Below the pieces are notes generated by a model that did no database searches, was not told the DNA's origin, and saw only the letters and a list, made by a program, of their open reading frames with translations. A stretch of 64,000 nucleotides of DNA, from positions 5,658,501 through 5,722,500 of the forward strand of contig NZ_LT670849.1 of the NCBI RefSeq assembly GCF_900142985.1, in the 5' to 3' direction. Source of the stretch: Bradyrhizobium erythrophlei. Lineage in GTDB: Bacteria; Pseudomonadota; Alphaproteobacteria; Rhizobiales; Xanthobacteraceae. Positions 12,260-58,950 of this stretch are shown in pieces (positions within the stretch are counted from its first letter, which is position 1; the number at the start of each line of letters is the position of its first letter). The position numbers and the translations under genes are program-made.

Positions 12260-12412
12260 ATATAGTGAACCTTCTGCTCCTCGATCCCGTCACCCATCAT
12301 CGCCGTCGCCATCGCGCGCGCTGGGCGGCTGTCATGTGGGCGACGAGCAAGGCGCTTTCGCGTGAGCGGCGGTTCCGCTAGGCTCGATTCGAACCGCAGG
12401 TGGAGGGGTACA

Positions 12413-12670: not shown

Positions 12671-12685
12671 CATCACTGCCTCCTT

Positions 12686-13294: not shown

Positions 13295-13358
13295 AATCTC
13301 CCAAAGAAAACTCCCGACCCGATCACGTCGGTACATCCGCGACGTGATCGGGGCGGGT

Positions 13359-15066: not shown

Positions 15067-15118
15067 GTCTACAGCCTCTCCAGTTGGGATTGAGACCCTC
15101 CTCGATGATAGTCATGGA

Positions 15119-40116: not shown

Positions 40117-40135
40117 AAATTCGCGGAGGAACATC

Positions 40136-43830: not shown

Positions 43831-44694
43831 TCATCCCGCCCTGACCTGGGCGCCGTAAGTGACGCCCTTTTCCTTGAGCCAGCGCCGATAGGCAATCGAC
43901 GTCGCATCGGCGCGGGTTGGAATTTCAGTCCGGGGGTCGAGTGGCAGCAGCCTGGGACGCTGATTTTCAAGGATGATGCGATCCTGCAGGAAGATCAGCT
44001 GCTGGAAGTGAATGAGGTCGGTCAGCGCCGAGGTGTCATCGATGAGGAACATCACCGGATGCGCCCGGCAGCGGTCGGGATCGAGCGGTTGCACGAACAG
44101 GCAGATCAAGTCCCAGCGATTGGCTGCATTGGGACAGGTCTTGTACAGGATGGTCGCGAACGGATTGGCCACCCGGTACATATATTGGGTCACGATACCG
44201 CCGGTCGCCGACAGCGCTGCCTGCGGCTGGAAAAACTGGCAATTCGTCGCCCACACCTCGTCGACGTCGCGGCGGATCTCGGTCGTGTACTGCATGACCT
44301 CGGTATGAGGCTCGGCGCCGAGGATATCGGTGTGCACGAACGGAAAGTGCGCCATGTCGAGAAAGTTCTCGACGATGCGAAGACCCGACGATTTCACCGA
44401 GATCGCGCCACAAACGATGACGCGCCGGTCGGTCTCGTCCGCTTCCGGAATCGGCAGCAGGTCCATAGCCGGCGTTCCCAGCGTGGCCCACAGATAGCCA
44501 TAGCGTTGGCGGGTTGGCAGCGGAGCTTCCTGTCCGGCAATCGTGACGGAGATGTTGCCGTCTGCGTTGCGGACGATGACCAGATCGGTGCCCAGCAGGC
44601 GGTTAGCAGCCCGGCCGGTTGGGATATCCGTCAACGCCTCGATGCAGTACCACTGATCGAGCGCCGCCTTCTCCGCTGTCTTTTGCATGCGCAA
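43831..44694 (-). CDS. Rieske-less oxygenase catalytic protein (non-haem Fe domain only)
   Basis: A 287-residue protein that begins like a Rieske oxygenase (DQWYCIEALTDIPTGRAANR) but jumps from the strand VRNADGNISV straight to PTRQRYGYLWATLG. The whole [2Fe-2S] lobe with CxH and CxxH is therefore missing. The catalytic domain is intact: N110-x-x-D113-x-x-H116-x4-H121 in ENFLDMAHFPFVH, and the third ligand region LQDRIILENQRP. It must receive electrons from a separate Rieske protein; the one at 51492-52205 is the candidate. It lies between the deaminase and the 2OG oxygenase in the minus-strand operon. Confidence 0.8.
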   Translation of the reverse strand: MRMQKTAEKAALDQWYCIEALTDIPTGRAANRLLGTDLVIVRNADGNISVTIAGQEAPLPTRQRYGYLWATLGTPAMDLLPIPEADETDRRVIVCGAISVKSSGLRIVENFLDMAHFPFVHTDILGAEPHTEVMQYTTEIRRDVDEVWATNCQFFQPQAALSATGGIVTQYMYRVANPFATILYKTCPNAANRWDLICLFVQPLDPDRCRAHPVMFLIDDTSALTDLIHFQQLIFLQDRIILENQRPRLLPLDPRTEIPTRADATSIAYRRWLKEKGVTYGAQVRAG

Positions 44695-44713
44695 CTCCCC
44701 AGAGGTTCGTCGG

Positions 44714-46117
44714 TCAGGCGTCTGCGTAAATCCGCTTCATCACGCCGGCGTGGTCGGCCATGGCGGCCTCGACGTCGAAAGCGGTGAACTCACCTTTGCG
44801 GATGATTTCCTTGCCGTTGATGAAAGAATAATCCACCCGGAACGGACCGCACATCAATAACGCGGCGAGCGGGTCGCGTTGAGTTCCCGACAGGCCGATC
44901 TGGTTCAGCCGGACGGCGATGAAGTCGGCGCTCATGCCGGGTGCAAGGTAGCCGATATCGTCGCGGCCGAGAATCGCCGCACCGCCGCGTGTCGCCATGC
45001 TGAACGCCTCGCGCGCGGAGAGCGCCTTAGGCGTGCCGCCGAAGCCACCGCGACCGCCCGGCTTCTCCGATAGATAATGATGCGGCGCCACACGTTGCAG
45101 CATCAAGGCCAGCCGCGCTTCCATGAACAGGTTGGAGGTGTCGTTCGACGCCGAGCCGTCGACCCCGAGGCCGACCTTGACACCGCAATCGAGCATTTCG
45201 CGGATCTTGGCGATACCCTGGCCGCAACGCATGTTGGCGGAGGGACAATGCGCGACGCCGGTGCCGGTCGCAGCGAAACGCTTGATTTCATCCGATGTCA
45301 TGAAGATCGAGTGCGCGAACCAGACATCGGGGCCGAGCCAGCCAACGGATTCGGCAAATTCGACCGGTCGCATGCCGTAGATCTCGTAGCAGTATTTTTC
45401 TTCGAACAATTCCTCGGCGAGATGCGAGTGTAAATGGACGCCGGCATGCCGGCGCGCGAGCGCGGCTGCTTCGCGCATCAGGTTCGGCGTCACCGAGAAC
45501 GGCGAGCAGGGCGCCAACACGATCCGGTTCATCGCGTGCCGCGAATTGTCGTGATAGCGCTGGATCAGCCTCTCGGAGTCCTTCAGGATGGCGTCTTCCT
45601 TTTCGACGCAACTGTCGGGCGGCAGGCCACCCTGGCTCTCGCCACGCGACATGGCGCCGCGCGCGGCGTGGAAGCGCATGCCGATGGCTCGCGCCGAATC
45701 GATCGAGCTGTCGAGCGTAGAGTTGTTGGGAAGAATGTAGAGGTGGTCGGAGGTCGTGGTGCAGCCGGAGTAGATCAGTTCGGCCATGGCCACACTGGCC
45801 GATATCCGCATGGCATCGTCGTCGAGCTTGGCCCAGATCGGATAGAGCGTCTTGAGCCAGACCAGGAGCTCGTCATCCTGCACCATCACGCGGGTCAAGG
45901 TCTGGTACATGTGATGGTGGATGTTGACCATGCCCGGCATCACGACGTGTCCGGAAAGGTCAAGCGTCGCGTCGGCCGGCATCGCGCCGATGTCGGACGA
46001 TGATCCTACGGCCTCGATGACGTTGTCGCGGACATAAATCGCTCCGTCCTTTATTTCGCGGCGTTCATCGTCGAACGTGGCCAGCAGTTCGATATTCTTG
46101 ACAAGGAGCGTGCTCAT
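44714..46117 (-). CDS. Amidohydrolase, 8-oxoguanine deaminase type
   Basis: A 467-residue protein from the ATG at 46117, which overlaps the permease stop (TAATG). HHHMYQTLTRVMVQDDELLV with the first HxH, then VHLHSHLAEE, WFAHSIF and GVDGSASNDTSN, supply the zinc site. The HMYQTLTR segment and the long C-terminal part resemble 8-oxoguanine/guanine-type deaminases. Tight coupling to a nucleoside-type (BMP) ABC importer supports a purine-like substrate. A long upstream extension to 46783 is antisense-like and discarded. Confidence 0.85.
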   Translation of the reverse strand: MSTLLVKNIELLATFDDERREIKDGAIYVRDNVIEAVGSSSDIGAMPADATLDLSGHVVMPGMVNIHHHMYQTLTRVMVQDDELLVWLKTLYPIWAKLDDDAMRISASVAMAELIYSGCTTTSDHLYILPNNSTLDSSIDSARAIGMRFHAARGAMSRGESQGGLPPDSCVEKEDAILKDSERLIQRYHDNSRHAMNRIVLAPCSPFSVTPNLMREAAALARRHAGVHLHSHLAEELFEEKYCYEIYGMRPVEFAESVGWLGPDVWFAHSIFMTSDEIKRFAATGTGVAHCPSANMRCGQGIAKIREMLDCGVKVGLGVDGSASNDTSNLFMEARLALMLQRVAPHHYLSEKPGGRGGFGGTPKALSAREAFSMATRGGAAILGRDDIGYLAPGMSADFIAVRLNQIGLSGTQRDPLAALLMCGPFRVDYSFINGKEIIRKGEFTAFDVEAAMADHAGVMKRIYADA

Positions 46118-47052
46118 TAGCGGACATCCCTGTAGTAGGGCTCGCCGAGCGCGGCGGGCGCGGCCATCAACCGACGCACGCGGTGCCAGGCCAGCACGGG
46201 TACGATGATCAGTGCGATGGTTCCAAGATAAGGCAGCATCGACAGAATGGGCGCGGCGATCGGCCAGTTGCGCGCTTGGCCTACGAAGCCGAGCGAGGTG
46301 ATGGCGCCGAACAACAGCGCGGCGAGAACGGCATTGATCGGTCTGTAGCCTGCAAAGATCACCAGCGCGACCGCAATCCAGCCGCGGCCTGCGACGACGC
46401 CTTCCGACCACGACGGCACAAAAGCCAACGTCAGGTAAGCACCGGCGCCTGCCGCGAGCGATGAGCCCATGGCGACGTACCAGAAACGAAATTTCTGCAC
46501 CGAGATGCCGGCTGCGTCCGCCGCGGCCGGATTTTCTCCGACCGCGCGCAGGTTCAGGCCATGACGGCTCCGGAACATGACAAAGTGCATGACCGCCGGG
46601 ATGACGATATAGATCAGATACGCCAGCACATTCTGGGTAAAGACAGCGCGGCCGAGCAGGGGGATATCGCTCAGATAGGGAATGGCTACCGGCGCAAACG
46701 TGGCGCGCGCCGGCATTCCGGAATAGGCCTTGCCGATCGTGGCGGCGAGCCCGGTACCCATCAGCGTCAGCGCCAGACCGCAAAGCACCTGGTTCGCCCT
46801 CAAGCCAACCGTTGCGGCGGCGAAGATCATGCCGACGGCGAAGCCCACGGCAAGCGCTCCGATCAAGCCAAGGGTGGGACTGGGTGTGGCGGTGACGATC
46901 GCAATCGCCGTAATGGCGCCGAGCGCCATCAGCCCTTCGACCCCGAGATTGACGACGCCGACGCGCTCGGACAGCACTTCGCCGAGCGCGGCAAGCGCCA
47001 ACACGCCGCCGGCGAGGATCGAGGTCTGCAAAAGCCCTGCGATGATATCCAT
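46117..47052 (-). CDS. BMP-family ABC transporter permease, second (YufQ-like)
   Basis: A 311-residue protein with about nine hydrophobic segments, LLQTSILAGGVLALAALGEV near the start and VNLGVEGLMALGA typical of the ribose/nucleoside-type permease family (BPD_transp_2). It ends in a 1-4 bp overlap with the deaminase ATG and starts 10 bp after the other permease, forming a two-permease set. Confidence 0.87.
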   Translation of the reverse strand: MDIIAGLLQTSILAGGVLALAALGEVLSERVGVVNLGVEGLMALGAITAIAIVTATPSPTLGLIGALAVGFAVGMIFAAATVGLRANQVLCGLALTLMGTGLAATIGKAYSGMPARATFAPVAIPYLSDIPLLGRAVFTQNVLAYLIYIVIPAVMHFVMFRSRHGLNLRAVGENPAAADAAGISVQKFRFWYVAMGSSLAAGAGAYLTLAFVPSWSEGVVAGRGWIAVALVIFAGYRPINAVLAALLFGAITSLGFVGQARNWPIAAPILSMLPYLGTIALIIVPVLAWHRVRRLMAAPAALGEPYYRDVR

Positions 47053-47061
47053 GCGCAGCCT

Positions 47062-48114
47062 TTATTTACTGGCCGTGTCGATGGGGACGAACCGATAATG
47101 CGCCAGCTCGTCACCGATCGCGGTAAAAAACAAGATCAGGCCTGTGATCGCCAGGACGGTGGACGTGTTCACCCCCTGCGTTTGCAGGATGATTCCGGAA
47201 TTGAGGATCACCGCCATCAGGCTGGCGCCCGCCAGTACCCCAAGCGCCGAGCCGCGTGCGAGCACAGCAACCATGATGCCGAGATAGCCGAAATTGTTGG
47301 AGATGCCGCCCTGCAGCCGATGAACGGTTCCCGCCACCTCCAGCATCCCTGCGATGCCCGCGATCGCGCCGGACAGCAGCATGACGGTGATGAGATGGCG
47401 TCGAAACGGGATGCCGGCATAGCGCGCGGCCTGCGCGTTCGATCCGGCGATACGTACTTCATATCCCCAGCGGGTAAAATTCAGGATGCCGGCGATGAGC
47501 AGCGTCAGCGCAATGGCCAGCGGAAACCCCCAATGAACGTCGCCCCAGATTTCAGGCACGTTGTGCCGGACACGCGCCGTGGTTCCGAGCGCATGGCCGC
47601 CCGGATCGAGCCATGGCCCGGTCGAGACATAATAGGCGAGCAGGGTGCCGACGAAATTCAGCAGCAGCGTCGTGATGAGTTCGCTGACCCCGGCATAGGC
47701 GCGGGCCAGGGTCGGAATCAATATCCAGAGAACACCGCAGAGCGCGCCGCCCACAAACATCAGCGGCAAGATGACGAATGTGGGTCCGGGAATGAAAAGT
47801 CCGATGCCGGTTGCGGCAAAGGCGCCGGCATAGAATTGACCCTCGGCGCCGATATTCCATGCGCCGACCTTAAGTGCGACGGCCACCGCAAGTCCCGTGA
47901 GGATGAGGGGCGTGAGCAGCAGACTGACGTCCTGTAGCCCGAAGCTCGATCCGAAGGTCGACTGAATGACTTTTGCGCTCAGCGCGATCGGATTGACGCC
48001 AGATACGCCGAGCACCAGGCCCGCGCATACCAGCGCCAGCACGATTGCCATGCCGCGCGCCAGCAATGCGACGGCTGGCTGCGGCGAAGGAAAATATTGC
48101 AGACGGACGGCCAA
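47062..48114 (-). CDS. BMP-family ABC transporter permease, first (YufP-like)
   Basis: A 350-residue membrane protein. Conserved segments include VGAWNIGAEGQFYAGAFAAT, the family's central motif, and many hydrophobic helices (LALVCAGLVLGVSGV and others). It partners the neighbouring permease and the duplicated ATPase, 3 bp away from the latter. Import of purine nucleosides or similar bases is typical of these systems. Confidence 0.87.
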   Translation of the reverse strand: MAVRLQYFPSPQPAVALLARGMAIVLALVCAGLVLGVSGVNPIALSAKVIQSTFGSSFGLQDVSLLLTPLILTGLAVAVALKVGAWNIGAEGQFYAGAFAATGIGLFIPGPTFVILPLMFVGGALCGVLWILIPTLARAYAGVSELITTLLLNFVGTLLAYYVSTGPWLDPGGHALGTTARVRHNVPEIWGDVHWGFPLAIALTLLIAGILNFTRWGYEVRIAGSNAQAARYAGIPFRRHLITVMLLSGAIAGIAGMLEVAGTVHRLQGGISNNFGYLGIMVAVLARGSALGVLAGASLMAVILNSGIILQTQGVNTSTVLAITGLILFFTAIGDELAHYRFVPIDTASK

Positions 48115-48116
48115 GC

Positions 48117-49709
48117 TTAGTTCGCTGCAACTGAGAGAGGAGGGTTGGTTGCCCGCTGACCACCCATCAACAGTCCGATTTCCTCGATGTCGGTTGAGAT
48201 GCCATCGACAATTCCCATGATGCGGCCATGGAACATCACCGCGATGCGGTCGGATAGGTTCAGGAGTTCCTCCAACTCTTCCGAAATCAGAACGACGGCG
48301 CAGCCGGAATCGCGCAACTCGACAAAGTATCGCATCATGGTGTTGATGGCACCGACGTCGAGGCCGCGGCTCGGATACGCCGCGATCAGCACTTTGCCGG
48401 CGATGCGCATCTCACGGCGGGCGACCAGCCTTTGCTGATTGCCGCCCGACAAATTGCGCACGGGCATGCCGAAATCGGGAACCGCAACGGACGCGGCAGC
48501 CGCGATGGTTTCGGCCAGTGCGGTGGCGGCGCGCGGCCGGAACCAGCTTCCAACGGAAACCGGCGGCTTGTTGTATTCACGCATCACGGCGTTGTCGGTG
48601 ACGCTGAGCGCAGGCGCAAGGCCGCTGTGAAGCCGGTCTTCCGGAATGTGGCCGACACCGAAGACGGCGAATTGTTCGGCGCTTTTGCCGGTGAAGTCCT
48701 TCTGCCCGACTTCGATCCTGCCGGAGACGACGGGCCGCATTCCCGTCAAAACCTGGCTCAGCTCCTTCTGGCCGTTGCCGGCAACGCCGGCGATGCCGAG
48801 GATCTCGCCGGCCTTGACCTCCAGCGATACGTCATTGAGCGCGAGGTTGCCGAGGTCGTCATGCGCGCAGACCTCGTGCAGGCTCAGTACCGCTTGCGAG
48901 GAAATCGACGTGGAGCCTTGCGCGCGCCCCCGCAGGTCGTTGAGAACAATCTCGTGGCCGACCATCAATTTCGCCAGGCTCTTGTGCGTGCAGTTGCGGG
49001 TCTCTTCGGTGGCAACCTTGTGTCCGCCGCGGAGCACGGTGATGCGGTCGGAAATTTCCAGGACCTCGTCGAGCTTGTGGCTAATGAAGACGACGGCGTT
49101 GCCGCGGGAGACGAATTCCCGCAGCGCCTTGAACAATTCGCGGGCTTCGGACGGTGTCAGCACCGCAGTTGGTTCGTCAAGGATCAGGAGCCTCGCTTTC
49201 TGGGCCAGCACCCGCAGGATTTCGACCCGCTGTTGTTCGCCGGTCGACAGGTCCTCGACCCGCGCGTCTGGCTTAACCGCGAGATTCAAGGTTCTGGCGA
49301 GTTCGGCGGTCCGCGCCTCCAGCGCCTGGTCGCTGACCCTCGACGGCGTTTCTTCCCATCCGAGATGGATATTTTCCGCGACCGTGAACGCATGCACCAG
49401 CTTGAAATGCTGATGCACCATACCGATTCCGGCAGCGATAGCCTCGACCGGAGAAGCAAAGGTCTTGGCATAGCCGTCGACAATGATCTCACCGGCATCG
49501 GGCTGGTAAATGCCGGTGAGAATGTTCATCAGCGTGGATTTGCCGGCGCCGTTTTCTCCAAGCAGCGCGTGGATTTCGCCGCTCAGCACCTCGAGATCGA
49601 CAGACTGATTGGCAACGACGCCCGGAAAGTACTTGCAGACACCCTTGAGGAGCACGATCGGGGGCGTTCCCGGAGGTCGCCCCGCGCTGGTCTTGTTTGG
49701 TGCACTCAT
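48117..49709 (-). CDS. BMP-family ABC transporter ATPase (two nucleotide-binding domains)
   Basis: A 530-residue protein. The first domain has Walker A GENGAGKST, signature LSTGEQQRVEI and Walker B LLILDEPT. The second has a degenerate P-loop region (AGVAGNGQKE) and signature LSGGNQQRLVARR. This tandem design with a weaker second Walker A is typical of MglA/RbsA/YufO ATPases for sugar and nucleoside import. It is the second gene of the operon. Confidence 0.9.
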   Translation of the reverse strand: MSAPNKTSAGRPPGTPPIVLLKGVCKYFPGVVANQSVDLEVLSGEIHALLGENGAGKSTLMNILTGIYQPDAGEIIVDGYAKTFASPVEAIAAGIGMVHQHFKLVHAFTVAENIHLGWEETPSRVSDQALEARTAELARTLNLAVKPDARVEDLSTGEQQRVEILRVLAQKARLLILDEPTAVLTPSEARELFKALREFVSRGNAVVFISHKLDEVLEISDRITVLRGGHKVATEETRNCTHKSLAKLMVGHEIVLNDLRGRAQGSTSISSQAVLSLHEVCAHDDLGNLALNDVSLEVKAGEILGIAGVAGNGQKELSQVLTGMRPVVSGRIEVGQKDFTGKSAEQFAVFGVGHIPEDRLHSGLAPALSVTDNAVMREYNKPPVSVGSWFRPRAATALAETIAAAASVAVPDFGMPVRNLSGGNQQRLVARREMRIAGKVLIAAYPSRGLDVGAINTMMRYFVELRDSGCAVVLISEELEELLNLSDRIAVMFHGRIMGIVDGISTDIEEIGLLMGGQRATNPPLSVAAN

Positions 49710-49755
49710 CGGCCGTCTCTGGTGTTGCTGGCGCGGTGCTACGCCGGGCTGATGA

Positions 49756-50865
49756 TCAGATGCCTCTCACACCGTCGATCGACCAATCCCAATTGTAAAG
49801 CTCGGCTTCGGTCATCTTCTTGCCGGCCGCGACTTTGACGTTGCCCTTGGCGTCCTTGATCTCTCCGACAAACGGGCTCCAGCCGCCGGCGATTTTCTCG
49901 CGAACGGCATCGGCCTGCTTGCGAACTTCCTCCGGCACCGTCTCGCCCCAGGCGTCGCGATCGACGCCGCCGCCCATCGGCAGGATGGTCTGCGTCGGCA
50001 CCCATTTTCCTTCGAGCCGGGCGCGAACCTGATCGACATAGAACTTCTTGAAGTCGATGACGATCGAGGAGACGTAGGCCTTGGGTCCGAAACGGCGGAT
50101 ATCGGTATTCCACATCACCGCCTTGGCGCCGCGCTTCTCCGCCACTTGCAGGTAACCGGCTTCGTCCATGATGCCGAATACGAGGTCGGCACCGTTGTCG
50201 ATCAGCGCCGTACCGGCCTGGGTGGCGGCCTGTGGGTCGAACCATGAATTGATCGCGATGACCTGCATCGTCGCGGCGGGGTTGACGCTTCGCGCGCCCA
50301 TCAGGAAGGCGTTGGTGCCGGAGAACACGGAAGGCACCGGGAACGAGCCGACGTAACCGAGCTTGCCGGTCTTGCTGATCAGGCCCGCCGCCACGCCGGT
50401 CACATAGGTCGGATACCAGTGGGCAAGATAATAGGTGCTGAGATTGTCGAGAGGATTTCTGCCATCGCACTCGTAGAAGGCGACGTCGGGCGATTTCTTC
50501 GCGACGTCATACAGAAAGTCGCCGTAGTTCGAGGTGGCGAACACCATGTTCGCGCCTTGCGAAACGAACTGACGGAACGTGCGTGACGCGTCGGCGGAAT
50601 AAGGAATGCTTTCGACGAAGACGGTTTTCAATTTGGGGAAGGCAGCTTGCACGGCCTTCATTCCCTGGTCATGGCTCCAGGTCCATCCTTCGTCGGCGAC
50701 CGGTCCGGTGTGGCCAAATGCGATGATGGCCTTCTCTTCCGGCACGGCCGGAAGCGGCGCGGCGGCGCTCGCTGGACGGATCAACTGCGGCATCACCAGG
50801 GATGTGCCGGCGGCGGCGCCGAGATTCAAAAGTCCGCGGCGCGAGAGGTTACGCAAATCGATCAT
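49756..50865 (-). CDS. BMP-family substrate-binding protein, Tat-type signal
   Basis: A 369-residue protein from the ATG at 50865 with AGAAAGG upstream. The N-terminus NLSRRGLLNLGAAAG is a twin-arginine signal, unusual for what is normally a lipoprotein family. AIIAFGHTGPVADEGWTWSH and the LSTYYLAHWYPTYVTGVAAG segment are characteristic of Bmp/PnrA proteins, which bind purine nucleosides. First gene of the seven-gene minus-strand operon that ends with the 2OG oxygenase. Confidence 0.88.
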   Translation of the reverse strand: MIDLRNLSRRGLLNLGAAAGTSLVMPQLIRPASAAAPLPAVPEEKAIIAFGHTGPVADEGWTWSHDQGMKAVQAAFPKLKTVFVESIPYSADASRTFRQFVSQGANMVFATSNYGDFLYDVAKKSPDVAFYECDGRNPLDNLSTYYLAHWYPTYVTGVAAGLISKTGKLGYVGSFPVPSVFSGTNAFLMGARSVNPAATMQVIAINSWFDPQAATQAGTALIDNGADLVFGIMDEAGYLQVAEKRGAKAVMWNTDIRRFGPKAYVSSIVIDFKKFYVDQVRARLEGKWVPTQTILPMGGGVDRDAWGETVPEEVRKQADAVREKIAGGWSPFVGEIKDAKGNVKVAAGKKMTEAELYNWDWSIDGVRGI

Positions 50866-51198
50866 GTTCGGACCTTTCTGATTGTGCAAACGAACGGCTT
50901 GGATTTTGAAAGAAAGTCGATGGAGATCAGGCAACTCTTGTGCCAAGGCGGCACCGATCGAAAAATTGTTTCAGACACCCTCTGTTCCGGATAGAGCGCA
51001 ATTGCTGTCGCGCCAGATGCGCCAAACGCAACACTTGACGCGCGGTTTTTTCACCGCCTAAAAACCAAAACCCTAGTCTTGCCAAGGCGCTGTCGTCGTA
51101 GGCGGCCCTGGGTGCCAATTGATCGATTTCTGTGCAGAAAGCCGCGTGCAGCGACGCTTTTTTCAGCGATCGAACTACAGCGGTTTCGGTACGATCGG
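50866..51198. promoter_or_regulatory. Divergent control region between the two oxygenase operons
   Basis: 333 bp between the BMP binding-protein start and the acylphosphatase-like gene. It contains palindromes GTGCC-N5-GGCAC at 50940-50954 and GCGGT-N6-ACCGC near 51041-51056, and a repeated CTTG-(TG)-CCAAGGCG core at about 50937 and 51076. These are candidates for binding of the LysR protein encoded at 52840. No clear -35/-10 set is claimed. Confidence 0.4.
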
Positions 51199-51480
51199 AT
51201 GCTCGAACCTCATGCGGACCAAGCGACGATGAGCCACGACCACGCGCATTTCGTCTTTAAGGGCAGGTTCCAGATTAAAAGCTTCGTCGAATTTGCGCGG
51301 CATCGCGCCGAGCGGCTTGGCCTCGACCTTCAGTTCGGGCCATCCAGCGCTGAAGCCATCGCCGTCAACGTTTCCGGCGCGGTCGAATTGGTCGACGCGT
51401 TTGAAATGGCGTGCAGCCTCGGTCCGTTTGACTGTTTCGTGCTCGACGTCGCACGCCACGACATCAACCTGGCAGCCTGA
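51199..51480 (+). CDS. Acylphosphatase-fold-like protein lacking the catalytic arginine
   Basis: From ATG 51199 (or 51229, MSHDHAHF) the product has HFVFKGRFQIKSFVEFARHR, AERLGLDLQFG and a VELVDAFEMACSLGPFD helix-strand end. This reproduces the beta-alpha-beta pattern of acylphosphatases (VxGxVQGVGFRxF...AxxLGLxGWVRN...). The catalytic Arg of GVGFR and the Asn of WVRN are replaced, so it is probably not an enzyme. It is the first gene of the unit containing the stand-alone Rieske protein, just before it. A scaffold or binding role is speculative. Confidence 0.5.
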   Translation: MLEPHADQATMSHDHAHFVFKGRFQIKSFVEFARHRAERLGLDLQFGPSSAEAIAVNVSGAVELVDAFEMACSLGPFDCFVLDVARHDINLAA

Positions 51481-51491
51481 TGGGGGATGAA

Positions 51492-52205
51492 ATGAGCCTG
51501 AAGGATTGTTGGCATCCCGTCGGTCTGTCCCATTCTTTCGAAGCCAGCAGTTCGGCCGGCACGCGCCTGTTCGATCAGGAACTGGTGGTCTGGCGCGACA
51601 GCAGCGGCGTGGCGCATGTCTGGGAAGATCGTTGTCCGCATCGGGGCATGAAGCTCAGCTTCGGCTTCGTGCGCGGCGATCACATCGCCTGCCTTTATCA
51701 CGGCTGGCAATATAACAGCGGCGGCCACTGCCAGTATATTCCGGCCCATCCCGCTCTCGATGTGCCGCCGACGATCCGGGTGCCGGTCTATCCCGCTCAT
51801 GAGCGAAACGGAATGGTGTGGACCTCACTGTCCGAAAATCCGCCTCCCGTACCGGAAGAGGACGAGCCGGTGGTGCCGCTGCGCAGTCTCTATCTCGGAT
51901 GCGGCTTTGAGGTTGCGGTCGCGCTACTGGGCGCCAGTCGGCTGGCTCCTTTCGCAACGACCACTCCGGCCGACACCGTTGTCAGCCGTGCGAGCGACAC
52001 GCTGTTCAGGCTTTCGTGCGGGCAAGACCGGCTGCTTGTGGGCATTCAGGTCATCTCGGACGCGCGCACCGCGCTGCATCTGTCGATCGGCGGGACGGCG
52101 GAGCGCTACAGCGGCGCGGGCCAGGACCATTTCAATGACTGGGCGCTCGGGCTGCGTCATGCGGCGGAGCACGTTGGCGTGACGCAGAATCGGGATGTGG
52201 CCTGA
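51492..52205 (+). CDS. Stand-alone Rieske protein with non-catalytic C-terminal domain
   Basis: A 237-residue protein from ATG 51492 (GGGGGATG upstream; 51480 also possible). The Rieske lobe is complete: Cys48-x-His50 (DRCPHRG) and Cys67-x-x-His70 (CLYHGW), embedded in a sequence like the N-terminus of phthalate-type oxygenases. The following region is short and lacks the N-x-x-D-x-x-H-x4-H iron site. It can therefore carry electrons but not activate oxygen. Proposed donor to the catalytic proteins at 43831 and 58087. It overlaps the GST-like gene by one base. Confidence 0.8.
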   Translation: MSLKDCWHPVGLSHSFEASSSAGTRLFDQELVVWRDSSGVAHVWEDRCPHRGMKLSFGFVRGDHIACLYHGWQYNSGGHCQYIPAHPALDVPPTIRVPVYPAHERNGMVWTSLSENPPPVPEEDEPVVPLRSLYLGCGFEVAVALLGASRLAPFATTTPADTVVSRASDTLFRLSCGQDRLLVGIQVISDARTALHLSIGGTAERYSGAGQDHFNDWALGLRHAAEHVGVTQNRDVA

Positions 52206-52840
52206 TGTCAAAGGGACTCGTTCTCTATAACTACGAGCTCGACGAGAGTTGCTACAAGGTCAGGCTTGCATTGTCCTTGCTTGGCCTTCAGTGGCAGGCT
52301 GTCGCCGTCGATGTCTTTCCCGGCAACGAGCATCTGTCGCCGACATTTCTGGCGATGAACCCGGCTGGCAGGTTGCCGATCCTGCGCGATCGCGATGTCG
52401 TGCTCCATGGCACCGAAGCCATCCTTGCGCATCTCGCCCGCGCGCATGATCCGTCGGGCAAATGGCTTCCCGCGCAGGGCGCTGAATTCGCCGAGGTGAT
52501 GCAGTGGCTGATTTTCTCGGCGCATGATCTTGGCGCCACGATCGCCGCGCGTCAGCATTCGCTGTTCGGAACGCCGGGGGACGAGCCATCGCTGTATGCC
52601 GCATCGTCCCGCGCCATCCGCATCATGGACGATCACATGACGGCGCGCGGCTTTGCGCAAATGGAATGGTTCGCCGCGGGGCATCCAACAATGGCGGATG
52701 TCGCGCTGTTTCCGGCCTATGCGCTCAGCCGTGACTTCGGCATTGACCATGACGAGTACCCGGCGCTGCGCCGATGGGGCCGGCGGTTTCGCGCGCTGCC
52801 CGGTTTCAGGACGATGCCGGGCATCCCGGACTATCACTGA
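52205..52840 (+). CDS. Glutathione S-transferase family protein
   Basis: A 211-residue protein. KGLVLYNYELDESCYKVRLA begins a thioredoxin-like N-domain with the Ser/Cys-containing active-site region, and NPAGRLPILRDRDVVLHGTE is the glutathione-site strand and cis-proline plus SNAIL-like segment. The C-terminal all-helical domain follows. It overlaps the stand-alone Rieske gene and the LysR gene. In the NdmCDE caffeine demethylase a GST-like NdmE is structurally required, so it may have a scaffolding role here; catalysis as a true GST is equally possible. Confidence 0.85.
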   Translation: MSKGLVLYNYELDESCYKVRLALSLLGLQWQAVAVDVFPGNEHLSPTFLAMNPAGRLPILRDRDVVLHGTEAILAHLARAHDPSGKWLPAQGAEFAEVMQWLIFSAHDLGATIAARQHSLFGTPGDEPSLYAASSRAIRIMDDHMTARGFAQMEWFAAGHPTMADVALFPAYALSRDFGIDHDEYPALRRWGRRFRALPGFRTMPGIPDYH

Positions 52841-53841
52841 TGGGACCGAAAGTCCCAGGACAGCGTGGCGGTCGGCGAAATGAAACTCCTGCCGCGGCGC
52901 GGATCAATGCGAACCGGCCGACGGATCCTTACCGGCTGGGACTTGTCGCTCCGCGCATCCATTATTTCCAGCTGGTCGCCCGGCTCGGATCGATCCGCCG
53001 CGCGGCCCTGGTCCTGAGGGTTGCACCCTCGTCAATCAGCCGGGTCATCAAGCAGCTCGAGGAAGAGCTCGGAACGCCGCTATTCGAACGCAAACGGCAG
53101 CGCCGCGTGCTGACCAGCGCCGGCGAATTGCTGCTTTATCATTCCCGCATCAGCACGGCCGAGCTCATTCGGGCATCATCGAAGATCAACGACCTTCACG
53201 GATTGTTTCGCGGCACGGTTTCGGTCGCGATTATCGAAAGCGCCGCACGCGGGCTGTTGCCGCGCATCCTGGCGAAATTCTGGGCGCAGCATCCGGGGAT
53301 CAATGTCGACATCAAGGTCATCGGATCGAGCCAGGCCTGCGATGCCGTCGCAGAGGGCGATTGCGATCTTGCCGTTGCGTTCGATGTGCAGGTGCCGCGA
53401 AATGTGCGCCGGATCGCAAGTAGCAGCCTGTCGCTCGGCGTGCTGGCCAAGCCGGGCAGCCCCTTCGCCGCCAAGAAGCAATTGAAGCTGTTCAACCTGT
53501 CGGGGGAGCGCGTGATCCTGTCCGATAACAGCCTGATGCTCGGCATCTCGGTCGAAGAGGCCTTCAACCGCTCCCTGATCGAATTGACGTGCCGCTCGCG
53601 CACCAATTCCATCGGGCTGATGATCGAAATGGCCAATATGGATCTTGGCGTCGTCTTGCAGACCCGCGTCGGAATCGAGCGCGAGATCGCCGATGGCGAT
53701 CTCGTCTTTGTGCCGTTGCGCGATCCCAAGATCAGCCCGCGGCGCCTGATGTTGCTGGCGAGGCCGGAGAAGGAAATGTCCGATGCGGCGCTGGCGTTCG
53801 GCGCGTTGCTCGCGGAGGCGATCGAAGGCCTGGTCGACTGA
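52840..53841 (+). CDS. LysR-family transcriptional regulator
   Basis: A 333-residue protein from an ATG overlapping the GST stop (TGATG). After a basic 40-residue leader, the HTH reads IHYFQLVARLGSIRRAALVL then RVAPSSISRVIKQLEEELGT, very like the LysR at 30234. The remainder is the effector-binding domain. Cotranscription with the Rieske/GST genes suggests it regulates the divergent promoter at 50866-51198 or the decarboxylase operon starting at 53963. Confidence 0.87.
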   Translation: MGPKVPGQRGGRRNETPAAARINANRPTDPYRLGLVAPRIHYFQLVARLGSIRRAALVLRVAPSSISRVIKQLEEELGTPLFERKRQRRVLTSAGELLLYHSRISTAELIRASSKINDLHGLFRGTVSVAIIESAARGLLPRILAKFWAQHPGINVDIKVIGSSQACDAVAEGDCDLAVAFDVQVPRNVRRIASSSLSLGVLAKPGSPFAAKKQLKLFNLSGERVILSDNSLMLGISVEEAFNRSLIELTCRSRTNSIGLMIEMANMDLGVVLQTRVGIEREIADGDLVFVPLRDPKISPRRLMLLARPEKEMSDAALAFGALLAEAIEGLVD

Positions 53842-53962
53842 GGTTCGATGGAAAAATCGATGTCGGCAGGTGTTGCGTTTTGCGCACCGTTTTGAGCGGA
53901 AAAAATGGTCTATCCGGAACACCCGGGGAATTGCGAGTTAGGGTGGCGGAAAAGAGGATACA

Positions 53963-54463
53963 ATGAAGAAAAGCGCGGTCGAAGCCGTCATTCGCGGGCT
54001 GAAGAGAGCAGGCGTGAGCGTCGTCTGCTACCTGCCGGATTCGCTGTTTAGGGAACTGTACCCTGCGCTCGACGCGGACCCGGATATCCGCACCATCCGT
54101 GTCACCAACGAGGGCGAGGGCGCTGCGATTTGTGGCGGGGTTTTCCTGTCGGGCAAGAAGGCCGCGCTGGTGATGGAGAACTCCGGATTGCGCGCGTCCG
54201 TGGAACCGCTGGCCCGGATGGGGTTGGGAGCGGGAATTCCGGTCGTGATGCTGATGAGCTATCGCGGCGAGCTCGGCGAAAACAACTGGTGGGCCATTCC
54301 GCATGGCATCACCATGGAGCCGGTGCTGGACGCGCTGCGCATTCCCTATCGCGTGGTGCGCGAGGAGGACGAGATCGAGCGTGCGATTCTGGATGCCTAT
54401 ACCTGGTCGTATGCTTCCTACTACCACTCGGCGATCGCGCTCGGCGGTGAGGTGGTGCGATGA
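53963..54463 (+). CDS. TPP-dependent decarboxylase alpha subunit (sulfopyruvate decarboxylase-like)
   Basis: A 166-residue protein. KRAGVSVVCYLPDSLFRELY and RVTNEGEGAAICGGVFLSGK are the pyrimidine-binding domain signature with the conserved Glu, and GIPVVMLMSYRGELGENN is the substrate-side loop. In ComDE sulfopyruvate or phosphonopyruvate decarboxylases the two halves are separate polypeptides like this. The overlap with the next gene (ATGA) ensures 1:1 expression. Substrate class is a 2-oxo acid; sulfopyruvate itself is not proven. Confidence 0.82.
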   Translation: MKKSAVEAVIRGLKRAGVSVVCYLPDSLFRELYPALDADPDIRTIRVTNEGEGAAICGGVFLSGKKAALVMENSGLRASVEPLARMGLGAGIPVVMLMSYRGELGENNWWAIPHGITMEPVLDALRIPYRVVREEDEIERAILDAYTWSYASYYHSAIALGGEVVR

Positions 54464-55068
54464 AGCGGTTCGACTGCATGAAAGCGCTCGCCGCGCGTCT
54501 CAAGAACGAGCTGGTGATTCTGTCGCTCGGGGCCAGTGTTGACGAATGGTACAACGCGGCTCCGCATATGCGCAGCGCCAGCCTTTTTCAGCAGCAACTC
54601 GGCTGCGTGACGCCCGAAGCCTTCGGGCTCGCGGTTGGCCTGCCGCACCGTCGCATCGTATCGCTCGATACCGACGGCGGGATGATGTTCAATCTTGGTA
54701 TTCTCGCCACGCTCGGTAACGAGCAGCCGAAGAACCTGTTCGTCGTTGTCTGGGACAATGAATGTTATCAGTCGATCGGCGGACCGCCGACGCACACCGC
54801 ATCGGGGCGGGTGGATATCGCTGCGATCGCACGCGGGGCCGGTGTCGAGCAGGCCTTTACGGCCCACACCGTCGAGGAATTCGATGCGCATTGCGCCAGG
54901 GGCCTCGCAAGCGAGGTGCCATATGTCGTGGTCGCCAAGGTTTCGGGAACGGTGCAGCCAGACATCAAGCGCAAGCACAGCGACGGCCGGGAAGACAAAT
55001 ACATTTTCGTTCGTCATGTCGAGGCGACCGAGAACATCGTGATCATGGGACCTAGTGAGCACAACTGA
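54460..55068 (+). CDS. TPP-dependent decarboxylase beta subunit
   Basis: A 202-residue protein carrying the TPP/Mg2+ site: VSLDTDGGMMFNLGILATLG then NLFVVVWDNECYQSIGG. The aspartate-glycine-glycine variant replaces the usual GDGS of ComE, and the N of the GDG-N30-N motif is conserved. It partners the alpha subunit at 53963. It overlaps the GMC oxidoreductase start by 14 bases, so the decarboxylation product (aldehyde) could feed the oxidoreductase. Confidence 0.82.
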   Translation: MKRFDCMKALAARLKNELVILSLGASVDEWYNAAPHMRSASLFQQQLGCVTPEAFGLAVGLPHRRIVSLDTDGGMMFNLGILATLGNEQPKNLFVVVWDNECYQSIGGPPTHTASGRVDIAAIARGAGVEQAFTAHTVEEFDAHCARGLASEVPYVVVAKVSGTVQPDIKRKHSDGREDKYIFVRHVEATENIVIMGPSEHN

Positions 55069-56683
55069 CCCGACAAAACCCACGTTGACGGCGGCGATTC
55101 CCCTTCGCCAGCTCAAACCTGCCTATGATTTCATCGTGGTGGGCGCCGGATCGGGCGGCTCGGCCGTGACGAGGCGCCTGGTCGACGCCGGCGCAGATGT
55201 CCTGCTGATCGAAGCTGGACCTCCGGGAATCGGTGTTGCGGAAATTGACGAGCCCAGCAAATGGGTCCCGCTCGGGCGTAGCGTTTATGATTGGGGCTAC
55301 GACTACGCGCCGACGCCGCATGTCAGCGGCCGCACCATTGGAATTCCCAGGGGCAAGGTGCTCGGTGGCTCCTCCGCGATCAACGCCATGATGTGGTACC
55401 GCGGCCACCCCGCGGACTATGATGCCTGGGACGCTTCGGGTGCGAAGGGCTGGGCCTTCAAGGACGTGCTGCCGTATTTCAAGCGGTGCGAAGATTGGGA
55501 AGGCGGCGCAAGCGAATGGCGCGGCGCCCATGGCCCGCTGCGCATCGAGCGAAGCCGCGCGTTGCACCCGATTGCGGCGGCGATGATCGAGGGCGCGGCT
55601 GAACTCGGCATTCCCGTCATCGACGATCCGAACGGCGCGACCAATGAAGGCGCCGCGCCTTCCAATTTCAACATAAGCGCTGGCAAACGTTTCAGCTCCG
55701 CGCGGGGTTATCTCTGGCCGGTGCTGGATCGCTATAACCTGACGGTCGTTCCCAATTCGCTGGTGACCGGGCTTGGCTTCGAAGGCCGGCGCTGTGTCTC
55801 GGTCCGCCACCGCGTCGAGGGCCAGGAAATCGAGACACGTGCCGTGGTCGAAATTATCCTGGCGCTGGGCGCCATCAATACGTCACGTCTCCTGATGCTG
55901 TCTGGTATCGGTGCTCCGGCCGAACTCCGGCGGCTCGGCATCGGCGTGAGGGCTGCACTTCCAGGGGTGGGCCAGAATTTGCAGGATCATCCGTTGGTTC
56001 GCGCCGTCAATTTCAGGGCCAAGCGGCCTCTCGGCGCCGTGAGCGACAATGGCGGCGGATCGATGATCAACTGGAAGACGCGCTCTCATCTGGCGCAAGC
56101 AAACGTCCATGCTTTCCCGGTTCAGGGCCGCAGCGCCACGGCCGAAGTCGCAAACGGCTACGATCTCGGCGGTGACGTATTCGCCATTGGCACCGGCCTG
56201 ATGCGTTCGCGCAGCCGAGGCTACCTGCGCCTGCTCGGAACTGAGCCTTCATCGCCGATCGAAATTCAACCCAACTTTCTCAGTGAGCCGGAAGACCTGA
56301 ACGACCTCGTCGATGCGGTCGACGTCGTGATGGAGCTTGGAACCAGCAACGCCTTTGCCAATTGGTTCGCAGGGCATGCCGCGCCGGAGCGGCGGCTCAA
56401 TCGTGCCGAAACGGTCGATTTTATCCGCACCGCGTGCTCAACCTTCTTTCATACCTGCGGCACCGCCAAAATGGGCAACGACGATATGGCCGTGGTTGAC
56501 GAGCGACTGGTGGTGCGTGGTGTCGAAGGTTTGCGCATTGCGGATGCTTCCGTGATCCCGATCATTCCGAGTTGCAACACCCATGCGCCCGTGACGGTCA
56601 TCGGCGAGCGCGCGGCAGATTTCATCTTGAAGTCGGTCGGCGATCTCAGCGAAGCAAGAGTAGAAGGGCACGGTACGACATGA
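55055..56683 (+). CDS. GMC-family FAD oxidoreductase
   Basis: A 542-residue protein from a GTG inside the decarboxylase gene. DFIVVGAGSGGSAVTRRLVD is the dinucleotide-binding motif, GKVLGGSSAINAMMWYRG the GMC signature 1, and the C-terminus has FFHTCGTAKMGNDDMAVVDE with the catalytic histidine region. Members oxidise primary alcohols or choline. Likely acts on an alcohol from the same pathway. It overlaps the amidohydrolase gene (ATGA). Confidence 0.9.
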   Translation: MSTTDPTKPTLTAAIPLRQLKPAYDFIVVGAGSGGSAVTRRLVDAGADVLLIEAGPPGIGVAEIDEPSKWVPLGRSVYDWGYDYAPTPHVSGRTIGIPRGKVLGGSSAINAMMWYRGHPADYDAWDASGAKGWAFKDVLPYFKRCEDWEGGASEWRGAHGPLRIERSRALHPIAAAMIEGAAELGIPVIDDPNGATNEGAAPSNFNISAGKRFSSARGYLWPVLDRYNLTVVPNSLVTGLGFEGRRCVSVRHRVEGQEIETRAVVEIILALGAINTSRLLMLSGIGAPAELRRLGIGVRAALPGVGQNLQDHPLVRAVNFRAKRPLGAVSDNGGGSMINWKTRSHLAQANVHAFPVQGRSATAEVANGYDLGGDVFAIGTGLMRSRSRGYLRLLGTEPSSPIEIQPNFLSEPEDLNDLVDAVDVVMELGTSNAFANWFAGHAAPERRLNRAETVDFIRTACSTFFHTCGTAKMGNDDMAVVDERLVVRGVEGLRIADASVIPIIPSCNTHAPVTVIGERAADFILKSVGDLSEARVEGHGTT

Positions 56684-58065
56684 CCGATGCCGAGTTCATC
56701 CTCGCAGGCGACTTTCTGCTCACCATGGACGCGCAAAATCGCGTCATTCGTGATGGCGCCGTTCATATCGCAGACGGCCGCATCCTGAACGTTGGTGCGC
56801 TGGACCAGTTTTCGGCGGCCTCACCATCGACGCCGGTCAAACGCATTAGAAATTCCGTGTTGATGCCGGGCCTGATCAACGCCCATGCCCATTCCGGATT
56901 CTTGCGAGGGACCGCCGAACATCTCCCGGTATGGGACTGGCTGACGCTGCACATCAACCCGATGCACCGGGTATTGCAGGCAGACGAGGCGGAGGCGGCC
57001 TCATGGCTGTGTTATGCCGAATCGGTGCTCGGCGGCACCACGACGGTGGTCGACATGTGGCGCTTCATGGAAGGCAGCGCCAAGGCGGCGGAAGCGATCG
57101 GCAACCGGCTGGTAGCGGTCCCTTACGTCGGCGAGCATCCGGACTATGACTATTTCGATACGCTCGACATGAACGAAGCCTTGATCGAAACCTGGCATCG
57201 CAAGGCAGATGGCCGCATCAATGTCTGGGTTGGGTTGGAGCACTTGTTTTACGCCGACGAGGCCGGGCAGCGCCGCGCCATCGAGCTGGCGAAAAAACAT
57301 AACACCGGTTTTCATACGCATTGCAGCGAGGCGGAAATCGAGCTTGCCGAATTTGCCGCCCGCTACCGCAAGCGGCCGATGTTTGCGCTCGACGATCTCG
57401 GTTTCTTCGAGACGCCGCGAACGATGATCGCGCATGGCGTCTGGCTTGATGCGAGCGAAATCGAATTGATTTCGACGAGACGCGTCTCGGTAGCGCACAA
57501 TCCCGTCAGCAACATGAAGCTTGCGAGCGGTATCGCCCGCGTGTCGGAGATGCTTGCGGCAGGCGTTGCCGTTGGCATCGGTACCGATGGCGAGAAGGAA
57601 AACAACAACTTCGACATGTTCGAGGAAATGAAGGTCGCCTCACTGCTGGGCAAGCTGAAGGACCTCGATGCGGCCGCGCTCGACAGCTGGCAAGTGTTGC
57701 GGATGGCCACGATCACCGGCGCCAAGGCCATCGGCCTCGACCACGAGATCGGCTCGATCGAGGCCGGCAAGCGCGCCGATATCATCGCCGTACGCACCGA
57801 CACGCCCCGGATGACGCCGCTGTTCGGCAGCGGGCCTTATTTCAACCTCCAGCACAATCTCGTGCATGCCGTGCGCGGCGGTGACGTCGCCATGACGATG
57901 GTAGACGGCAGGATTGTGGTCGAGGAGGGCGCTCTGAAAACGGCCGACCTCGGCGCGATCATTGGGCGCATTCGCGATCTCGCGCCCGGGCATTTTGCGC
58001 GCCGTGCGGAGTTCCTTGCCAAAAATACCGGGGGCACGGTGCAATGGACCCAGAAGAGCGACTGA
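56680..58065 (+). CDS. Amidohydrolase, third copy (deaminase/chlorohydrolase type)
   Basis: A 461-residue protein from an ATG overlapping the GMC stop. NAHAHSGFLRGTAEHLPVWD with HxH, then GFHTHCSEAE, MIAHGVWLDASE and GIGTDGEKENNNFDMFEE, supply the metal site. The aspartate loop TDGEKENNN differs from the VDGSASND of the other two copies, indicating a distinct substrate. It lies just before the second Rieske-less oxygenase, 21 bp apart, repeating the pairing seen at 43831/44714. Confidence 0.86.
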   Translation: MTDAEFILAGDFLLTMDAQNRVIRDGAVHIADGRILNVGALDQFSAASPSTPVKRIRNSVLMPGLINAHAHSGFLRGTAEHLPVWDWLTLHINPMHRVLQADEAEAASWLCYAESVLGGTTTVVDMWRFMEGSAKAAEAIGNRLVAVPYVGEHPDYDYFDTLDMNEALIETWHRKADGRINVWVGLEHLFYADEAGQRRAIELAKKHNTGFHTHCSEAEIELAEFAARYRKRPMFALDDLGFFETPRTMIAHGVWLDASEIELISTRRVSVAHNPVSNMKLASGIARVSEMLAAGVAVGIGTDGEKENNNFDMFEEMKVASLLGKLKDLDAAALDSWQVLRMATITGAKAIGLDHEIGSIEAGKRADIIAVRTDTPRMTPLFGSGPYFNLQHNLVHAVRGGDVAMTMVDGRIVVEEGALKTADLGAIIGRIRDLAPGHFARRAEFLAKNTGGTVQWTQKSD

Positions 58066-58086
58066 TCGAATCCGGATGCGAAACCG

Positions 58087-58950
58087 ATGACCAAGACGAC
58101 CGATAAAGCAGCGCTGGATCAGTGGTACGCGGTCGAGACCAGCGCCGATCTCGGCAGCGCGATCGTCCGCACGCGGTTGCTCGGGCAGGATATCGAGCTG
58201 TTCCGCGATAACAGCGGCCCGCCGGTCATCGCGGAAATAAAGGAAGACGGCCAGCGCGGGCCCGCATTGCCGTTTCGCGAACGCTACGGTTGCGTCTGGA
58301 CCACGCTCGGCGAGCCGCCACGGGAAATTTTCGATATTCCGGAGGCGAGCGAACCTGATCGCCGTTTTGTGCCCTGCGGTTGGGTGAAGATGCGTGCGTC
58401 GGGCCTTCGGGTGGTCGAGAACTTTCTCGACATGGCGCATTTTCCCTTCGTGCACAAAGATATTCTGGGCTCGGAAGAGCATGCCGAAGTCCCGCAATAT
58501 TCAAGCGAGTTGCGCCGGGATGTCGATGAGGTCTGGGCGAGCAATTGCAGTTTTTTCCAGCCGCGAATTGCGGCGACCGAGACCGAAGGCGCCTTCGTGC
58601 ATCTAACCTACCGGGTGCCGTCGCCCTTTGTCGTGATGCTGTATCGCGTCTGCCCTACAGCGCCAGACCGGCTCGACGCCATTGCACTGTTCATCCAGCC
58701 CCTGGAAGAGGATCTCTGCCGCGCCCAGCCGGTGATGTACCTCGTTGACGCGGTCTCGGATCACAGTTCGCTTCTGAATTTCGAGCAGGTCATTTTCTTG
58801 CAGGACCGGATTATTCTCGAAAATCAGCGGCCCTTGCTGCTGCCCCTGGAGCCCCGCTCGGAAACCCCGACCCGGGCCGACAGTTCGTCGATCGTCTACC
58901 GCCGCTGGATCAAGGAAAAAGGCCTCCGCTTCGGCACGGTCACAAAGTAG
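58087..58950 (+). CDS. Rieske-less oxygenase catalytic protein, second copy
   Basis: A 287-residue protein, same length as the copy at 43831. It starts DQWYAVETSADLGSAIVRTR, lacks any CxH/CxxH cluster site, and continues at FRERYGCVWTTLGEPPREIF. The iron site is intact: E111-N112-x-x-D115-x-x-H118-x4-H123, plus LQDRIILENQRP. Diverged from the first copy but with the identical internal gap, which shows the loss is old and functional. Last gene of the plus-strand operon starting with the TPP decarboxylase. Confidence 0.8.
   Translation: MTKTTDKAALDQWYAVETSADLGSAIVRTRLLGQDIELFRDNSGPPVIAEIKEDGQRGPALPFRERYGCVWTTLGEPPREIFDIPEASEPDRRFVPCGWVKMRASGLRVVENFLDMAHFPFVHKDILGSEEHAEVPQYSSELRRDVDEVWASNCSFFQPRIAATETEGAFVHLTYRVPSPFVVMLYRVCPTAPDRLDAIALFIQPLEEDLCRAQPVMYLVDAVSDHSSLLNFEQVIFLQDRIILENQRPLLLPLEPRSETPTRADSSSIVYRRWIKEKGLRFGTVTK

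What the first reader, a model, noticed from the sequence alone, without database searches (positions are those of the whole stretch)
43831..58950. Split Rieske oxygenase: cluster protein and catalytic proteins encoded separately
Seen directly: proteins at 43831-44694 and 58087-58950 have an intact mononuclear-iron site but no CxH/CxxH cluster. The protein at 51492-52205 has the cluster but no iron site. In ordinary Rieske oxygenases both reside in one chain, as at 40136-41161 here. Established precedent: NdmC lacks a Rieske domain and uses the one fused to NdmD. Here the donor is stand-alone, there are two different acceptors, and no reductase is visible, so the layout is not NdmCD as described. 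Inference: one Rieske protein may serve two catalytic partners for different substrates or steps.
Basis: partly seen in the sequence, partly recalled or inferred. Interest (0 to 1): 0.88.

Follow-up and report, generated by a model that had tools for sequence, protein, structure and literature searches.

The report
Split Rieske oxygenase sharing one donor
In this soil bacterium an oxygen-using enzyme that is normally one protein is divided into an electron-delivering half and two alternative catalytic halves, and many related bacteria keep the same parts together, probably to break down modified purine bases.

Summary
Two 287-aa proteins (43831-44694, minus strand, and 58087-58950) have an intact mononuclear-iron site and no Rieske cluster; 51480-52205 has the cluster and no iron site. 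They are not decayed paralogues: among the best 120 homologues listed for each side, 120/120 catalytic proteins keep the iron motif and 118/120 Rieske proteins the cluster motif. In 397 genomes of the order, 42/42 with the Rieske protein (one a fusion) have a Rieske-less catalytic gene within 10 kb; the other 20 catalytic genomes all carry an NdmD-like Rieske-reductase fusion beside it. Closest known system: NdmCDE. The latter adjoins the Rieske gene in 95 of 97 split loci without a nearby reductase, 0 of 23 fused loci. Best reading: a reductase-free sister variant of NdmCDE in which one stand-alone Rieske subunit feeds two catalytic subunits, each usually paired with a deaminase. Some genomes keep only one catalytic type beside the Rieske gene, or the second far away, without its own Rieske gene. 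Binding, electron source and substrate were not tested.

The parts
51480..52205 (+). Stand-alone Rieske protein (RiO), 241 aa (or 237 aa from the ATG at 51492): Rieske domain plus a shortened catalytic domain without iron ligands
58087..58950 (+). Rieske-less catalytic subunit CAT-A, 287 aa
43831..44694 (-). Rieske-less catalytic subunit CAT-B, 287 aa (TTG start; an ATG lies two codons further in)
   Evidence: PF19112, no PF00355; 56% identical to CAT-A; separate clade in the tree
51229..51480 (+). Pseudo-acylphosphatase (AcP-like), 83 aa; its stop TGA overlaps the ATG of the Rieske gene by one base
   Evidence: sequence; family profile matches solved acylphosphatases, best E 3e-4; within 1.5 kb of the Rieske gene in 95/97 split loci without a nearby reductase; fused to the Rieske protein in P0111; NCBI names a relative acylphosphatase
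52205..52840 (+). GST-like protein, 211 aa, counterpart of NdmE; its ATG overlaps the TGA of the Rieske gene by one base
   Evidence: GST_N and GST_C domains; overlap; 41% identical to the GST of a Sinorhizobium NdmD-type locus; a GST hit in 80/80 named loci
44714..46054 (-). Amidohydrolase AH2 beside CAT-B, 8-oxoguanine deaminase family (the open frame runs to 46783)
   Evidence: NF006055 598 bits over a cut-off of 532; 7ww2 8-oxoguanine deaminase 486 bits
56677..58065 (+). Amidohydrolase AH1 beside CAT-A (TRZ/ATZ, methylthioadenosine/SAH-deaminase-like), below every curated cut-off shown
   Evidence: a same-strand amidohydrolase within 250 nt of CAT-A in 49/49 named loci
49756..50946 (-). 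BMP/PnrA-type substrate-binding protein of an ABC importer
   Evidence: PF02608 (on 49756-50868)
46117..49709 (-). ABC importer: permeases 46117-47052 and 47062-48114, ATPase 48117-49709
   Evidence: PF02653 twice, PF00005
52774..53841 (+). LysR-type regulator
53963..55068 (+). Two-subunit thiamine-pyrophosphate decarboxylase-like pair (53963-54463, 54460-55068)
   Evidence: sulfopyruvate decarboxylase alpha/beta models, below cut-off; comD/comE hits in 49/80 named loci
55055..56683 (+). GMC-family oxidoreductase
   Evidence: choline dehydrogenase-type models, below cut-off
40136..41161 (+). Comparator: ordinary one-chain Rieske oxygenase
   Evidence: PF00355 and PF19112 in one chain

Best explanation
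This is a split Rieske oxygenase and a sister variant of NdmCDE. A stand-alone Rieske subunit (RiO) supplies electrons in trans to Rieske-less catalytic subunits (CAT-A and CAT-B), across the same intersubunit contact that ordinary oxygenase trimers use between neighbouring chains. Each partner keeps most of the oxygenase scaffold but has lost the other's metal centre. A GST-like protein (as NdmE in NdmCDE) and a probably catalytically dead acylphosphatase-like protein are likely structural or docking subunits. Reducing power would come from a reductase or ferredoxin encoded elsewhere. The catalytic subunits most likely oxidise (N-dealkylate or hydroxylate) modified purines, together with neighbouring deaminases. 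SHOWN: metal motifs, scaffold folds in models, overlapping AcP-RiO-GST genes, co-occurrence, synteny, two lineages (fused and split). INFERRED: complex formation, electron route, roles of the GST-like and AcP-like proteins, substrate.
Against: No binding, co-folding or activity result. The models are poor at the metal sites: pLDDT block means of 47-61 over RiO residues 51-100, and below 50 at CAT residues 120-131, so cluster-iron geometry is untested. Electron source unknown: 21 of 41 split genomes (some of them drafts) show no NdmD-type reductase at E<=1e-15, and only 1 of 80 named loci has one nearby. In the window CAT-B is 7 kb away on the opposite strand and CAT-A 6 kb away. The substrate rests on neighbours only.
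Confidence: 0.79

Rival explanations
1. RiO serves only one of the two catalytic proteins; the other draws on another donor, for example the one-chain oxygenase 40136-41161 or an unlinked Rieske protein.
For: 29 of 80 named loci have CAT-B without CAT-A within the flanks (23 of them with full 10-kb flanks), so CAT-B + AcP + RiO + GST can stand alone. In four genomes CAT-A lies far from RiO. In the window CAT-A lies 6 kb from RiO.
Against: In G109 and G154 RiO, AcP and GST stand with CAT-A and without CAT-B, so neither type can be the sole partner of the RiO family. In G186, G364, G379 and G432 the distant CAT-A module has no Rieske gene in the 17-18 kb taken, and the genome has one RiO hit. 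No one-chain oxygenase was among the hits in the 80 named loci. The fused lineage also has several CATs per donor: three with one NdmD on S. meliloti pSymA.
Confidence: 0.1
2. The locus is a decayed NdmD-type system: RiO is an NdmD that lost its reductase and the CATs are inactive leftovers or regulators.
For: RiO is about as long as the part of the fused proteins that precedes the reductase (by eye; by BLAST only its residues 8-157 align with a fused protein); no reductase is local.
Against: Metal motifs are almost invariant across the 120 listed homologues each. The split rows form a supported clade (91/95) beside the fused clade (100/100) in the concatenated tree, not scattered losses. The AcP gene beside the Rieske gene is specific to the split form.
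Confidence: 0.06
3. RiO is a general Rieske ferredoxin that also feeds other oxygenases, its link to the CATs being only operon history.
For: Stand-alone Rieske ferredoxins exist in three-component systems (established knowledge; one, of toluene-4-monooxygenase, is among the weaker hits). RiO has no reductase partner nearby.
Against: RiO is not a 100-aa ferredoxin: it has about 120 further residues that align with an oxygenase catalytic domain in the model, and it is closest in sequence to oxygenase alpha chains such as SxtT and NdmA. In the survey it was never found without a CAT (42/42).
Confidence: 0.08

Closest known systems
NdmCDE (7-methylxanthine N7-demethylase complex of Pseudomonas putida CBB5) and its rhizobial relatives
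   Same: Rieske-less catalytic subunit, Rieske domain on another chain, GST-like third gene. The CAT of a Sinorhizobium NdmD-type locus is 45% identical to CAT-B and its GST 41% identical to the window's. The P. putida sequences themselves were not compared.
   Different: Rieske protein not fused to a reductase, no local reductase, an added pseudo-acylphosphatase, often two catalytic paralogues with deaminase neighbours. Fused and split rows form separate clades (rooting weak).
SxtT/GxtA and NdmA/NdmB one-chain Rieske oxygenases
   Same: Scaffold, cluster motif (in RiO) and 2-His-1-Asp iron ligands (in CAT).
   Different: Both centres are on one chain there; here each chain keeps one centre.
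Acylphosphatase
   Same: Family profile matches solved acylphosphatases, best E 3e-4; NCBI product name of one relative.
   Different: In the alignment to 1ulr the positions of the catalytic Arg and Asn (roles recalled) hold other residues.

Membership tests
NdmCDE N-demethylase | Catalytic subunit with iron site and no Rieske cluster | tested here: met
NdmCDE N-demethylase | Rieske domain fused to the FMN/NAD/ferredoxin reductase (NdmD) | tested here: not met
   RiO is 241 aa and matches only PF00355; no NdmD among the hits in the 80 named split loci
NdmCDE N-demethylase | GST-like gene with the catalytic and Rieske genes | tested here: met
NdmCDE N-demethylase | GST-like protein required for the complex and its activity | not testable with these tools
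   needs proteins
NdmCDE N-demethylase | N7-demethylation of 7-methylxanthine | not testable with these tools
   needs an enzyme assay
One-chain Rieske oxygenase alpha subunit | Rieske cluster and mononuclear iron site in one chain | tested here: not met
   met by 40136-41161
One-chain Rieske oxygenase alpha subunit | Rieske oxygenase alpha fold | tested here: met
   (both models align with SxtT over most of their length; low confidence at the metal sites)
Acylphosphatase | Catalytic Arg and Asn | tested here: not met
   alignment of the family profile to 1ulr; residue roles recalled
Three-component Rieske ferredoxin | Small (about 100 aa) Rieske protein without catalytic domain | tested here: not met
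   RiO has about 120 further residues that align with the oxygenase catalytic domain in the model

The most novel reading that the evidence does not exclude
A Rieske oxygenase ring in which a catalytically dead, cluster-bearing pseudo-subunit alternates with interchangeable catalytic pseudo-subunits, held together by a GST-like and a pseudo-acylphosphatase protein that together stand in for a covalent reductase link, so that a housekeeping ferredoxin drives two purine-modifying activities through one shared donor.
Probability: 0.3. Interest if true: 0.82.

Novelty: new variant of a known kind. Interest (0 to 1): 0.63.

Why it matters
Rieske oxygenases carry both metal centres in each alpha chain as a rule; NdmCDE was reported as the first case in which the Rieske domain is split off, there onto the reductase (PMC4408171 passage). 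Here the split is complete: the donor stands alone. The stand-alone form was found in 18 genera of the order survey (leaving out the fused G441) and often comes with two catalytic subunits per donor. That makes donor/acceptor recognition in these enzymes testable with separate proteins. It may also offer a smaller system for the NdmCDE-type complex, whose structure was called unsolved in 2026 (PMC13237722 passage). The AcP-like gene is an unexpected component, and its close association with the stand-alone form is a concrete clue to how the donor is docked. The genes suggest a route for modified purines in soil bacteria, where annotation seen here says only ring-hydroxylating dioxygenase.

Tried and rejected
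Strict mutual exclusion of AcP and reductase was considered and weakened. All 23 fused loci lack AcP, and the 4 split loci with a PDR reductase lack it within 1.5 kb of RiO, but G172 has an AcP gene 5.1 kb away and G422 has one about 7 kb downstream, after the ABC transporter genes that follow the reductase gene. L039 and L164 have neither gene nearby. AcP therefore goes with the stand-alone state, not simply with absence of a reductase.

Polarity (which form is ancestral) is not claimed. The Rieske-domain tree put the fused clade among the split rows with long outgroup branches. The CAT tree put part of the fused rows basal with weak support. The concatenated tree gave fused and split as separate clades; the branch at the ingroup root is labelled 17.6/73, and labels near the root may have shifted when my script re-rooted it.

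A dedicated reductase in the window's genome was sought. Two PDR-type reductases exist, one about 0.4 kb from another Rieske gene, plus a GR-type ferredoxin reductase and Fer2 proteins; none could be assigned. G311, a one-contig genome with the split system, has a single PF00175 protein, without a Fer2 domain by eye, and two PF14759 reductases.

Literature searches for a stand-alone Rieske plus Rieske-less pair, or for acylphosphatase with Rieske, showed no description in their listings. Only an open-licence library was searched, and of the listed papers I saw passages of four. Summers et al. 2013 is not held; the 18 ndmCDE-like clusters credited to it in PMC4408171 include rhizobia, so some split loci may already be listed there.

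Not done: co-folding of two chains (the tool folds one chain), mirror-tree tests (the genes travel together), the third protein search and the third Foldseek job.

Limits of the counts. CAT-A and CAT-B labels are best BLAST hits. The order survey scored at most 6 candidates per genome at cut-offs chosen by me, so weaker relatives were not counted; 'stand-alone' there means an open frame of at most 400 aa. One search also listed one-chain orthologues of 40136, because that protein was in alignment A2; they were not counted as CAT.

On that ground the best explanation went from 0.77 to 0.79 and the one-partner rival from 0.15 to 0.10.
Full report
WHAT IS THERE. The window lies at 5658501-5722500 of a 7.5-Mb one-contig genome. 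The genus appears to be Bradyrhizobium: two genomes listed as same genus (G073, G081) have contigs of the same lengths and the same Rieske sequences as Bradyrhizobium sp. Leo170 and Ai1a-2. The three proteins of the finding are real, with the correction that 43831-44694 is read on the minus strand. Pfam gives VanA_C without Rieske for the two catalytic proteins (CAT-A 58087-58950, CAT-B 43831-44694), Rieske without VanA_C for 51480-52205 (RiO), and both for the ordinary oxygenase 40136-41161. The SxtT iron ligands His164/His169/Asp280 (PMC7293229, one passage seen) align with CAT-A His118/His123/Asp240. Of the best 120 listed homologues on each side, 120 CAT keep the iron motif and 0 have a cluster motif; 118 RiO keep the cluster and 0 have the iron motif (on, which found 1750 and 3121 in all).

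RiO is the middle gene of an overlapping trio. An 83-aa gene (51229-51480) ends in a TGA that overlaps the RiO ATG, and the RiO TGA overlaps the ATG of a GST-like gene, 52205-52840. The GST is 41% identical to the GST of a Sinorhizobium NdmD-type locus. GST-like NdmE is required for N7-demethylation by NdmCDE and is proposed to be structural (PMC4408171 and PMC13237722, passages seen). The 83-aa protein belongs to a family whose profile matches solved acylphosphatases at a best E of 3e-4, but the positions of the catalytic Arg and Asn (roles recalled) hold other residues. NCBI calls a relative acylphosphatase in a Rhizobium leguminosarum gene run with the order acylphosphatase, Rieske protein, ring-hydroxylating dioxygenase alpha (Rieske-less), GST, amidohydrolase, BMP-type importer. 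In one of 120 RiO homologues (P0111) this domain is fused to RiO.

CO-OCCURRENCE. In 397 genomes of the order, RiO was found in 42 (E<=1e-34) and CAT in 62 (E<=1e-75). All 42 are among the 62, with both genes on one contig within 10 kb in 42/42 and within 600 nt in 33/42 (6.6 shared genomes expected by chance; relatedness of genomes is not corrected for). One of the 42 (G441) proved to be a fusion. The 20 CAT genomes without a RiO hit all have a Rieske-reductase fusion next to CAT, 19 with a GST hit. So each CAT genome had a donor: 41 stand-alone (open frames of at most 400 aa), 21 fused.

SYNTENY. The two loci without CAT are contigs of 7.3 and 8.8 kb. Both CAT types occur in 49, CAT-B alone in 29, of which 23 have full 10-kb flanks. 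An amidohydrolase gene on the same strand lies within 250 nt of CAT-A in 49/49 and of CAT-B in 58/78. Annotated R. tumorigenes pRt1078 shows the same extended cluster, with guaD beside CAT-B.

ONE DONOR, SEVERAL CATALYSTS. Besides the loci with both, RiO, AcP and GST stand with CAT-A and no CAT-B in G109 and G154. In G186, G364, G379 and G432 the genome has one RiO hit beside one CAT, and a second module LysR-TPP pair-GMC-amidohydrolase-CAT-A without a Rieske gene lies on another contig or about 280 kb away. In the fused lineage S. meliloti 1021 pSymA has three CAT genes and one NdmD. These patterns fit a donor that is shared in trans; they do not prove it.

THE ACYLPHOSPHATASE-LIKE GENE. With a profile built here, the gene lies within 1.5 kb of the Rieske gene in 95 of 97 split loci without a nearby PDR reductase, in 0 of 4 split loci with one, and in 0 of 23 fused loci (124 loci, some near copies). 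A genome-wide check over the 62 CAT genomes agrees: I count 37 of 41 split genomes with the gene beside RiO and 0 of 21 fused (compared). Exceptions: G172 and G422 have such a gene 5-7 kb from RiO together with a reductase, G312 has a reductase and no strong AcP, and G098 has AcP matches only on other contigs. It therefore tracks the stand-alone state.

ELECTRON SOURCE. No PF00175 reductase is in the window. Among 42 RiO genomes, 21 have no relative of the NdmD-type reductase at E<=1e-15; all 21 are split genomes, some of them drafts. The one-contig genome G311 has one PF00175 protein and two GR-type reductases. A ferredoxin/ferredoxin-reductase route is thus plausible, but it is inference.

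HISTORY. The fused Rieske proteins form one clade (100/100). In the concatenated tree fused (100/100) and split (91/95) are separate clades; the root is weak. CAT-A (100/100) and CAT-B (96/92) each form a clade, so the duplication is old and both copies were kept. The window's RiO is closest to Pararhizobium polonicum and Rhizobium herbae, and 4 of 89 same-genus genomes show a strong RiO (E below 1e-60), which suggests transfer.

VERDICT. A real, conserved, reductase-free variant of the NdmCDE design with a probably shared donor. The literature searched (open-licence papers only) showed no description of it; the 2013 paper on ndmCDE homologues was not available. By the membership test it is not NdmCDE itself, since the Rieske-reductase fusion that defines NdmD is absent, but it most likely works like it.

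Noticed in passing
38755-41161: The ordinary one-chain oxygenase (40136-41161) lies about 20 nt after another amidohydrolase (NF009059, 703 bits over a cut-off of 543), with SsuA-type ABC genes on both sides: a third deaminase + oxygenase pair in the window.
   Followed up: partly
L027 (G125), 1480-2490: A 336-aa one-chain oxygenase next to a BMP-type hit is most similar to CAT-B (37%) and may resemble the unsplit ancestor.
   Followed up: partly
L126 (Sinorhizobium meliloti 1021 pSymA): Three Rieske-less catalytic genes accompany a single NdmD-type fusion and a GST.
   Followed up: no
L178, L179, L180, L181 (G186, G364, G379, G432): CAT-A with its amidohydrolase, GMC and TPP-pair genes forms a module of its own, away from the Rieske gene.
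   Followed up: partly
42835-43788 (-): A 2-oxoglutarate/Fe(II) oxygenase-like gene sits beside CAT-B; similar genes occur in L041, L050 and L062 and near RiO in G109 and G154.
   Followed up: no
5635-16069: A tRNA-Leu is followed by integrase-like pieces and a resolvase-like gene, with few long frames: probably an island remnant (naming by eye).
   Followed up: no
L174 (G172) 5423-6397, L175 (G422) 6820-7194, L176 (G098) 7530-8795: Strong matches to the acylphosphatase-like family lie away from the Rieske gene; in L175 one comes soon after the ABC transporter genes that follow the reductase gene.
   Followed up: partly
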